Shown here: positions 12,093 through 14,376 of the stretch, piece by piece
Layout: each line of letters starts with the position of its first letter
Position numbering within the stretch: position 1 is the first letter of the stretch
The notes under the pieces: generated by a model
Database searches by the model: none
Seen by the model: the letters and a program-made list of their open reading frames with translations, nothing else
Told to the model about the DNA's origin: nothing
Program-made: the position numbers and the translations under genes
NCBI GenBank assembly: GCA_016210175.1
Contig: JACQUQ010000128.1
Coordinates: 1 to 39,190, forward strand
Length of the DNA stretch: 39,190 nt
Direction: 5' to 3'
Source: Chloroflexota bacterium
GTDB taxonomy: Bacteria; Chloroflexota; Dehalococcoidia; SHYD01; JACQUQ01

Positions 12093-12827
12093 TTATGCCC
12101 CGCCCTCCTGTTGCTGCGCCATGCTCGCCTGGAGCTTGTCCAGGTAGAACTGCATGCGGGCCTGGGGATCGGCCAGCTTCCGCAGGTCCTCCTCCAGTTG
12201 CCCCAGGCGGTCGCCGGGGAGGGCTACCAGGCACAGGTCGTCGGGGACCTGAGTATAGGCCCGCATTCCGGCGCAGCCCAGGGACATGGCCGGTTTCCCG
12301 TGGGTCATGGCGATGGGGAGCACACTACAGGCCGGCCGCGTGAACACGGCGCCCTGGGGGTTGTTGCGCCACATCACCGGCCCGGTCACCTCCTGGAGCA
12401 CCGCCACCTGGATGATGTTGGCCCACATGACCACCACATCGGGCGGGAGGGGGAACTGCCACAGAGGGCCATACACCACCCCAGCCGCCGGCTTGGTCAC
12501 GCGTGCGGTCTGCGCGACCTCGTCGGGGACGGCGGCCTCCTCCCCCTCGCAGTACTCGGCCATGAGGTCGAGCACTTCCTGCGCTTTCTCCCTGGGCAGC
12601 GGGAAGCCGGCGACCATCCCGCCGATAGCGCACCCCATGACGTGCTGCTCCGGGGAGGCGTAGAACAGCGCGGTCTCACCCCAGCGCCAGAGCGCGCAGA
12701 AGGAGGGAACGTCCTTCCCCGTGGCCGGTACCTCGGCAGGGCGCTCCGGTACAAAGGAGAGCGCGGCCGGGGGATAGAGGATCTGCAACTTCTCCAGCAA
12801 CAGTTCCGTCAGCTCGCGATAACCCAC
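12093..12827 (-). CDS. DUF169 family protein
   Basis: 244 residues. It fits the DUF169 family in length and layout. The N-terminal helix RELTELLLEKLQILYPPAALSF matches the family opening in which a Leu-rich helix precedes a Pro-x-Ala-Val-x-Phe strand. There follow FCALWRWGE with the conserved Cys region, a Cys-Ala-x-Gly-Gly turn in the middle, and PLPPDVVVMWAN, the family's Pro-Asp-Val-x-x-x-x-x-Asn-Pro-like segment. Biochemical role is unknown; homologues occur beside redox or C1 genes in several phyla. The ATG at 12827 has a GGGAGCG-like site upstream. The HMA gene lies 127 bases upstream on the same strand. Confidence 0.75.
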   Translation of the reverse strand: MGYRELTELLLEKLQILYPPAALSFVPERPAEVPATGKDVPSFCALWRWGETALFYASPEQHVMGCAIGGMVAGFPLPREKAQEVLDLMAEYCEGEEAAVPDEVAQTARVTKPAAGVVYGPLWQFPLPPDVVVMWANIIQVAVLQEVTGPVMWRNNPQGAVFTRPACSVLPIAMTHGKPAMSLGCAGMRAYTQVPDDLCLVALPGDRLGQLEEDLRKLADPQARMQFYLDKLQASMAQQQEGGA

Positions 12828-12954: not shown

Positions 12955-13224
12955 TCATGGATTGAAGGTGAGGAGATCGGTCGCTGCTTTGGAAGCGTCG
13001 GACGCATGGCCCATCGCCGCGTTCGCGCGCGCGATGGCCCGGCGGATGTCGTCGGCGGCCACCTGCTGCGGGTCGAAGGTCACGGTGACGGTCTTGGTGC
13101 GGAACTCAAAGGCCAGGTCCTGGATACCGGGCAGCTGGTGGACCTCACGGGTCACGTGTTCCACTCAGCCCTTTCAGAACGCTCCAGGAACGACCAGGGA
13201 GACCGTCTCATACTCGGTCGGCAT
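12955..13224 (-). CDS. HMA (CopZ-like) domain protein with two in-frame TGA codons at CxxC: candidate Sec-x-x-Sec selenoprotein
   Basis: 89 residues if the frame is read from the ATG at 13224, which has a very good ribosome-binding site (AAAGGAGAGG) five bases upstream. The product would read MPTEYETVSLVVPGAF-TGA-KG-TGA-VEHVTREV and continue as a typical heavy-metal-associated domain (LPGIQDLAFEF, KTVTVTFDPQQV, DDIRRAIARA). The TGAs are codons 17 (13174-13176) and 20 (13165-13167). In the family these two positions are the metal-binding cysteines of the CxxC motif. The rest of the frame is undamaged and codon use is normal. The gene ends with a third TGA that behaves as the real stop. Gene callers would report only the 69-residue piece from GTG 13164, which lacks the metal site. 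Selenocysteine insertion is the best reading; a double nonsense mutant is the alternative. Confidence 0.75.
13115..13145 (-). promoter_or_regulatory. Candidate SECIS-like hairpin downstream of second TGA
   Basis: On the minus strand AGGTCC (13145-13140) can pair with GGACCT (13120-13115) around a 19-base loop that can itself fold through ACC/GGT. It starts 19 bases after the second TGA of the HMA gene. Bacterial SECIS hairpins lie in the coding region shortly after the UGA, so the position is suitable. The pairing is short and I cannot test its stability. Confidence 0.3.
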
Positions 13225-13392
13225 GCCCGCCTCTCCTTTACCGTTGCTGGCACCGGGCGCCCGACCTGCGGCAGAAGCGCCACGCGAGGGACGCCCGGCT
13301 TGCCCCGTATTATAGGCGCCTGCTGCCGGAGCGTCCAGGGGGTGCGTCGGCGCGCTGCGACCAGGGAAAGGCTGGGAACGACCTGCGCGCGG

Positions 13393-14376
13393 TCAGTCGG
13401 CGAAGGCCTGGGTGTACATCCGTCCGTAGAGCGTGGTGGCCATCACGCCGATGCCGACCCGCCGGAACTCGGGGCGGAGCACATTGGCCCGGTGGCCTGG
13501 CGAGTCCATCAGCCCGGCGTGCGCCACCTCGACATTGGGCGCATAGGCCAGGTTCTCTCCGGCCACCCGGAAGCTGATGCCGGCCCGGCGCATGCGGTCG
13601 AAAGGGGAGAGGCCATCGGGGTTCTCATGGGCGAAGTAGCGGCGCTGGAACATGTCCGCGCTATGGGCGCGGGCCACCTGCTGGAGTCCTTTGTCCATCA
13701 CCAGGGGCGTCAGCCCGGCGCGGGTGCGCTCGGTATTCACCAACTCCAGCAGGCGTTGCTCATCGGCTTCGTGGGTGCTCAGCGAAACCCCGGGCGGGAT
13801 CGGGAGGTCCTGGCTGGCCGTCGGCGCCACCAGCGTGGGCTGCTCCAGGTCCAGGGAGACCACGTTGGCGAGCCGCAACAGCACCTCTTTCGCTGGTGGA
13901 GAGAGGGCAGCGACGTGGGGGCGTGCGGTCCGGGTCCACCAGGATTGCTCGATGGTGTCCCGTAGCTGGGGCTGGTAGGGCAGCACCAGCGGCAGGAGCG
14001 GCAGCATAGCGCTGATGAGGACCGCCCCGGCCAGGACCGGCGGCGCTACCCCCAGCACATGGTCCAGTCCACGTAAGAGACGCACGCGGTCCAAGAGCCA
14101 GGCGACACCGTTCCAGACCGGCTGGAGCGCCAGCCCGCCCAGGATGGCCGCCAGCACCGCCGCCCCGCTAAAGGCGGCCACCTGGGCGAGCGGGGCGTCC
14201 AGGCCCAGGTGCTGGCGCAACAGCTCCCCGCCGGGTCCGTAGCCCAGGCCCCCTGCCAGGAGCGTCAGGATAGCCAGGCTCATGTGCAACATCCCGGCTA
14301 CCAGCCCGGCCCGGAACCCCTGGAGCGCCAGGAATCCCAACACCACGGCCACTACCACATCCACCTCATTCACCAT
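13393..14376 (-). CDS. CvpA-like membrane domain fused to CAP/SCP (YkwD-type) domain
   Basis: 327 residues. Residues 1-130 hold four hydrophobic segments, beginning with VNEVDVVVAVVLGFLALQGFRAG, the typical opening of CvpA (colicin V production) proteins. After a linker, residues about 205-327 form a CAP domain: LLELVNTERTRAGL, then ARAHSADMFQRRYFAHENPDG, GENLAYAP, DSPGHRANVL and the final VGIGV strand. The His, Glu and second His of the CAP cavity are visible. The CAP part should face outside the membrane. Function may be cell-wall or envelope related; the family link between CvpA and secreted or peptidase modules is known, but the substrate is not. Confidence 0.85.
   Translation of the reverse strand: MVNEVDVVVAVVLGFLALQGFRAGLVAGMLHMSLAILTLLAGGLGYGPGGELLRQHLGLDAPLAQVAAFSGAAVLAAILGGLALQPVWNGVAWLLDRVRLLRGLDHVLGVAPPVLAGAVLISAMLPLLPLVLPYQPQLRDTIEQSWWTRTARPHVAALSPPAKEVLLRLANVVSLDLEQPTLVAPTASQDLPIPPGVSLSTHEADEQRLLELVNTERTRAGLTPLVMDKGLQQVARAHSADMFQRRYFAHENPDGLSPFDRMRRAGISFRVAGENLAYAPNVEVAHAGLMDSPGHRANVLRPEFRRVGIGVMATTLYGRMYTQAFAD

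What the first reader, a model, noticed from the sequence alone, without database searches (positions are those of the whole stretch)
12955..13224. Candidate double-selenocysteine (Sec-x-x-Sec) HMA metallochaperone
Seen: an HMA/CopZ-like gene on the minus strand has an excellent ribosome-binding site, an ATG at 13224 and a single open frame to 12955. The only interruptions are two TGA codons at 13174-13176 and 13165-13167. They stand exactly where the two cysteines of the CxxC metal site belong, with K and G between them. Known: HMA domains bind Cu, Hg, Zn and other soft metals through CxxC, and UGA at a Cys position in an otherwise intact gene is the hallmark of selenoproteins. Two random nonsense mutations hitting both Cys codons (TGC/TGT to TGA) while the rest stays intact is improbable. 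The same gene and its neighbours use TGA as a normal stop, so genome-wide recoding is unlikely. A protein with a di-selenol metal site would be unusual and is invisible to standard gene callers.
Basis: partly seen in the sequence, partly recalled or inferred. Interest (0 to 1): 0.88.

Follow-up and report, generated by a model that had tools for sequence, protein, structure and literature searches.

The report
Double-selenocysteine metal-binding HMA protein
A small bacterial gene that annotation pipelines would cut short almost certainly encodes a metal-binding protein whose two metal-gripping cysteines are replaced by selenocysteine, and a related groundwater bacterium carries two more genes of the same design.

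Summary
On the minus strand, 13224-12955 is an HMA-domain gene (PF00403, E 7e-12) with its own ribosome-binding site and promoter-like site. Two in-frame TGA codons replace both cysteines of CxxC.

The Sec interpretation survived every test I could run:
- The genome has selA, selB, tRNA-Sec (UCA) and a selD that itself carries a Sec-TGA.
- Another genome of the same order, from a different family, has two homologues (53% and 48% identical). Both carry the same TGA-x-x-TGA.
- A hairpin with loop CGUGA lies 24 nt after the first TGA in all three genes. Its GU needs an Arg codon (CGT) that makes up only 6% of Arg codons in either genome. The selD hairpin of the same genome has loop CGUGC.

Pseudogene, sequencing error, internal start and genome-wide recoding are rejected. 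Selenium incorporation itself is not shown.

It is not a new category. Sec-x-x-Sec HMA proteins are catalogued (NCBIfam NF041115). This gene scores far below that family's cut-off (37 versus 95 bits), so it belongs to a separate subfamily, found here only in one order of the phylum (probably Chloroflexota). In both genomes a copy sits beside an orthologous DUF169 gene (59% identity), a new functional lead. Soft-metal binding is inferred from fold and motif.

The parts
12955..13224 (-). UxxU HMA selenoprotein gene: 89 residues, ATG at 13224, TGA stop at 12957-12955
   Evidence: fold beta-alpha-beta-beta-alpha with nearest solved structures MerP 1osd and CopZ 2qif
13174..13176 (-). in-frame TGA, codon 17, first Sec (first Cys of CxxC)
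   Evidence: TGA also in both G401 homologues
13165..13167 (-). in-frame TGA, codon 20, second Sec (second Cys of CxxC)
   Evidence: TGA also in both G401 homologues
13141..13153 (-). candidate bacterial SECIS hairpin GACC-CGUGA-GGUC; loop starts 24 nt after UGA1 and 15 nt after UGA2
   Evidence: same place and identical loop in all three genes; selD SECIS-like loop of the same genome is CGUGC
13233..13239 (-). ribosome-binding site AAAGGAG
   Evidence: sequence
13309..13337 (-). sigma-70-like promoter TGGACG-17-TATAAT
   Evidence: 10/12 matches; shuffles mean 0.0
12093..12827 (-). DUF169 (PF02596, COG2043) gene directly downstream, conserved partner
   Evidence: Pfam E 4e-19; orthologue, 59% identity, lies beside the UxxU gene in G401

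Best explanation
The gene encodes a small, cytoplasmic-looking (no signal peptide apparent), soluble HMA protein in which both metal-binding cysteines of CxxC are selenocysteine (UKGU). Ribosomes read both UGAs as Sec through SelB, Sec-tRNA(UCA), and a short hairpin with an NGUGN loop just downstream that may serve both codons. The product most likely binds a soft metal ion (Hg(II), Cu(I) or similar) through a di-selenolate site, as a chaperone or scavenger working beside the genome's ordinary CxxC chaperone and copper ATPases. It probably acts in one pathway with the neighbouring DUF169 protein. Shown by computation: the gene, TGA conservation, Sec machinery and linkage. Supported: the SECIS hairpin. 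Inferred only: Sec insertion, the metal, and the role of DUF169.
For: HMA match with both TGAs on the CxxC cysteines. Predicted fold E6-11 H18-29 E34-40 E45-50 H57-75, pLDDT 76, nearest to oxidised MerP 1osd and CopZ 2qif. tRNA-Sec with UCA anticodon, 70 bits; SelA E 2e-137; SelB over cut-off in all 5 genomes of the order; SelD with one in-frame TGA in all 5, CAGU context seen. Two G401 homologues with the same TGA-x-x-TGA, found independently in a named groundwater MAG. Shared hairpin loop CGUGA; Arg CGT used by all three though CGT is 6.1% of Arg codons in both genomes; Val codons GTT (3.4%) and GTA (5%) in both G401 genes pair U-A where the window pairs G-C. Hairpins at the same place in all three occur in 1.8% of synonymous recodings, and with the observed stem lengths in 0.5%. 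selD loop of the same genome is CGUGC, others GGUGC. DUF169 orthologue (59% identity, E 4e-98; other sampled DUF169s about 25-28%) beside the UxxU gene in both genomes in different orientations.
Against: No peptide or selenium data. The window's SECIS stem is only 4 bp (-3.2 kcal/mol alone) and an overlapping hairpin (CACG-UGACC-CGUG) is the MFE form. The loop is 15 nt from UGA2, one short of the published 16-37 nt range. With three sequences covariation is not significant (166/500 shuffles), and whole-region folding energy is ordinary. No match at E <= 1e-9 in the three other genomes of the order, which are 57-81% complete. The assembly has 6.6% contamination. No transporter or mer gene stands next to the gene, so the metal role rests on fold and motif.
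Confidence: 0.87

Rival explanations
1. Pseudogene or sequencing error: two nonsense changes happen to hit the two Cys codons.
For: The frame is interrupted twice in a short gene of a metagenome assembly.
Against: Three genes in two genomes of different families carry both TGAs at the same positions, with roughly 50% protein identity kept downstream in frame. Promoter and RBS are intact.
Confidence: 0.01
2. UGA is read as another amino acid (Trp or Cys, by a suppressor tRNA or a changed code) rather than Sec.
For: Some lineages reassign UGA. I did not scan the whole genome for other UCA-anticodon tRNAs.
Against: 13 of 42 picked genes in the window end in TGA, as does this gene itself. A true tRNA-Sec, SelA, SelB and Sec-type SelD are present. 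TGA sits only at the two metal-ligand positions.
Confidence: 0.03
3. Translation starts inside, at GTG 13164 right after the second TGA, giving a 69-residue protein without the metal site.
For: Gene callers would report this ORF (picks 12955-13164). TGA-GTG abut.
Against: The homologues have TTC and GCC, not a start codon, after the second TGA. The RBS stands before the ATG at 13224 and the N-terminal residues align in the homologues.
Confidence: 0.02
4. It is a Sec-x-x-Sec protein, but its work is redox (diselenide/selenol exchange) or selenium carriage, not metal trafficking.
For: Most catalogued UxxC/UxxU selenoproteins are redox proteins. No metal transporter adjoins the gene. Oxidised MerP, with its CxxC disulfide, is the best fold match.
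Against: The HMA fold is a metal-binding scaffold. The reviewed UxxU HMA and MerT/MerP-like selenoproteins are annotated as metal-binding.
Confidence: 0.2

Closest known systems
NCBIfam NF041115 UxxU_metal_bind, metal-binding (seleno)protein (first listed as putative mercuric reductase, UxxU)
   Same: Small HMA-type protein with Sec at both CxxC positions
   Different: The window protein scores 37 bits against a cut-off of 95 and the G401 pair 22 and 34. No genome of the sampled class has a member over the cut-off. A separate subfamily, here linked to DUF169.
NF045683 MerT/CopZ fusion-like heavy metal transport selenoprotein
   Same: HMA domain in a selenoprotein
   Different: That family is a fusion with a MerT-like part; this gene is HMA only (24.5 bits against 375).
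MerP (TIGR02052) and CopZ (NF033795, NF033794)
   Same: Same fold and metal-site position; MerP 1osd and CopZ 2qif are among the best structural matches
   Different: CxxC instead of UxxU; below all curated cut-offs; no mer or cop genes adjacent.
MerP-type selenoproteins of the Global Ocean Sampling (PMC2398784)
   Same: MerP-like selenoprotein reported from environmental DNA
   Different: The motif is not given in the text read; sequences were not compared.

Membership tests
Bacterial selenoproteins | In-frame UGA at a position that is Cys in homologues | tested here: met
   Both TGAs on the CxxC of PF00403
Bacterial selenoproteins | UGA conserved in independent homologues | tested here: met
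   Two G401 genes with both TGAs
Bacterial selenoproteins | SelA, SelB, tRNA-Sec, SelD in the genome | tested here: met
[quoted passage not shown]
   Loop CGUGA, stems 4/5/7 bp, 24 nt from UGA1: met. 15 nt from UGA2: one short. Stem alone -3.2/-2.5/-7.6 kcal/mol
Bacterial selenoproteins | Selenium in the product | not testable with these tools
   needs mass spectrometry or 75Se
HMA domain PF00403 | Score over the gathering cut-off | tested here: met
   45.9 bits, cut-off 24.8
HMA domain PF00403 | HMA fold | tested here: met
   AlphaFold model pLDDT 76; PDB matches MerP, CopZ, HAH1/MNK1 with rmsd about 1.3-1.5
NF041115 UxxU_metal_bind | UxxU at the metal site | tested here: met
NF041115 UxxU_metal_bind | Curated score of 95 bits | tested here: not met
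   37.2 bits; homologues 22.3 and 33.7
NF045683 MerT_CopZ_Se | MerT-like part and score of 375 bits | tested here: not met
   24.5 bits, HMA part only
MerP / CopZ | Curated scores 92.55 / 91 bits | tested here: not met
   32.6 / 39.5 bits

The most novel reading that the evidence does not exclude
This is a second, independently evolved lineage of di-selenol metallochaperones, confined to one order of Chloroflexota. One SECIS hairpin decodes two UGAs nine nucleotides apart, and the protein works with a DUF169 protein as a so far undescribed soft-metal or selenium handling module.
Probability: 0.3. Interest if true: 0.68.

Novelty: new member of a known kind. Interest (0 to 1): 0.52.

Why it matters
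Proteins with two selenocysteines at one metal site are rare, and gene callers drop or truncate them. This adds a new subfamily in a lineage where no member of the known UxxU family was found, gives three sequences to test whether one SECIS can serve two adjacent UGAs, and offers a genetic link between such a protein and the uncharacterised DUF169 (COG2043) family. A di-selenolate site should bind mercury and other soft metals more tightly than CxxC (general chemical knowledge, not tested here), so purified protein would make that question directly testable.

Tried and rejected
- Pseudogene, internal GTG start and genome-wide UGA recoding were considered and rejected.
- Membership in NF041115, NF045683, MerP and CopZ was tested and failed on curated scores.
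- The first genome-contig scan with the single protein found nothing. The scan with the three-sequence alignment recovered only the two G401 genes as close relatives; the other 24 loci were distant HMA proteins, mostly Bacteroidales.
- Viral contigs and plasmids gave no relatives.
- Folding-energy tests of the SECIS region were not significant, and covariation with three sequences is uninformative.
- The DUF169 structure prediction failed (pLDDT 36), and no solved DUF169 structure was found, so its function stays open.
- Screening about 30 DUF169 loci of the class for an HMA neighbour found none within 1.5 kb; the linkage was seen only in this order.
- One candidate in passing (G387, a TGA near an HMA domain) turned out to be an ordinary stop after the domain.

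Full report
**Observation.** The gene is as described. On the minus strand there is AAAGGAG, 8 nt, ATG at 13224, then one open frame to a TGA stop at 12957-12955, interrupted only by TGA at 13176-13174 and 13167-13165. Read with TGA as Sec/Cys, the 89-residue protein hits Pfam HMA with 45.9 bits (cut-off 24.8), and the two TGAs sit on the two CxxC cysteines. A sigma-70-like promoter lies at 13337-13309. The long C-terminal part does not start from the GTG at 13164, because the homologues have no start codon there.

**Decoding machinery.** The genome (3.47 Mb, 91% complete, 6.6% contamination) has one strong tRNA-Sec with UCA anticodon, SelA, SelB and SelD. SelD has one in-frame TGA in all five genomes of the order, and the CAGU context was seen in each, which is direct evidence that this lineage uses UGA for Sec. 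SelB is conserved across the order (56-62% identity), and the selA and selB contigs and the selD locus have the base composition of the window (66-68% G+C; the short tRNA-Sec locus is 72%), so these genes are unlikely to be contamination. TGA is otherwise an ordinary stop: 13 of 42 picked genes in the window end in it.

**Homologues.** In the only close relative with hits (G401, same order, different family; the named record is Chloroflexi bacterium NC_groundwater_654_Ag_B-0.1um_66_63) there are two paralogues, 53% and 48% identical to the window protein, each with TGA-x-x-TGA at the same place. Searches of 400 genomes of the phylum, up to 393 of the class, 84,980 species' genomes, plasmids and viral contigs gave no other close member. 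Class and phylum are inferred: the phylum from the named relative, the class (probably Dehalococcoidia) from genome sizes of relatives.

**SECIS.** In all three genes the same hairpin position follows the TGAs: N-ACC[CGUGA]GGU-N, with the loop 24 nt after UGA1 and 15 nt after UGA2. [quoted passage not shown] The GU of the loop comes from the Arg codon CGT, which is 6.1% of Arg codons in both genomes yet is used in all three genes; chance about 2e-4 if independent, which the related sequences are not fully. In both G401 genes the flanking Val codons are the rare GTT and GTA, forming a U-A pair where the window has G-C. Synonymous recoding gives same-place hairpins in all three in 1.8% of trials, and with the observed stem lengths in 0.5%. 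The SelD hairpins of the five genomes have loops CGUGC (this genome) and GGUGC, so the CGUGA loop looks like what this lineage's SelB recognises. Weak points: the stem is short in the window, an overlapping hairpin is favoured by energy, and three sequences give no significant covariation.

**Neighbourhood.** Directly downstream on the same strand is a DUF169 gene (12827-12093). In G401 one of the two UxxU genes lies divergently beside a DUF169 gene that is 59% identical to it, whereas other sampled DUF169s of the class are about 25-28% identical. The genomes hold only 2 and 3 DUF169 genes, so adjacency in both by chance is about 5e-6. The differing orientation argues for functional linkage rather than leftover gene order. 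No other shared neighbour was seen in the genes scanned. DUF169 has no solved structure by sequence and its model failed. The literature gives only weak leads: one listing in a selenium gene-neighbourhood table and one nitrate-fitness hit.

**Function.** The model has the HMA fold; the nearest solved structures are oxidised MerP, the MNK1/HAH1 complex and CopZ. The genome also has an ordinary CxxC HMA protein and HMA copper-type ATPases, so the UxxU protein is an addition, not the only chaperone. I infer a soft-metal di-selenolate site. Which metal is unknown.

**What is known.** Reviews list an HMA-type UxxU family (NF041115), MerT-like, CopZ-type and cation-ATPase selenoproteins. The present gene is of that kind but falls far below the curated NF041115 score, and no genome of the sampled class has a member over it. 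I therefore file it as a new member of a known kind, forming its own subfamily.

Noticed in passing
L105 (own genome C109:2242-3171) and L103, L104, L106, L107: selD is itself a selenoprotein gene (CAG-U) in all five genomes of the order, with an 8-10 bp SECIS-like hairpin and loop CGUGC or GGUGC 32 nt after the TGA.
   Followed up: yes
G465:C7:4760-5386: A DUF169 gene in another genome of the class has one in-frame TGA; possible Sec-DUF169.
   Followed up: no
G726:C56:2110-2304: An HMA domain in a P-type-ATPase-length frame contains one TGA; possible UxxC or CxxU heavy-metal ATPase.
   Followed up: no
L039 (G387:C44:39360-39584): A TGA near an HMA domain; on reading, it is an ordinary stop after the domain and CxxC is intact.
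   Followed up: yes
window 13393-14376 (-): The gene upstream fuses a Colicin V production (CvpA-type) membrane domain to a CAP/SCP domain.
   Followed up: no
L010 (own genome C47:1033-1239): An HMA copper-type ATPase preceded in the same frame by a stretch that looks like a cupredoxin domain (by eye).
   Followed up: no
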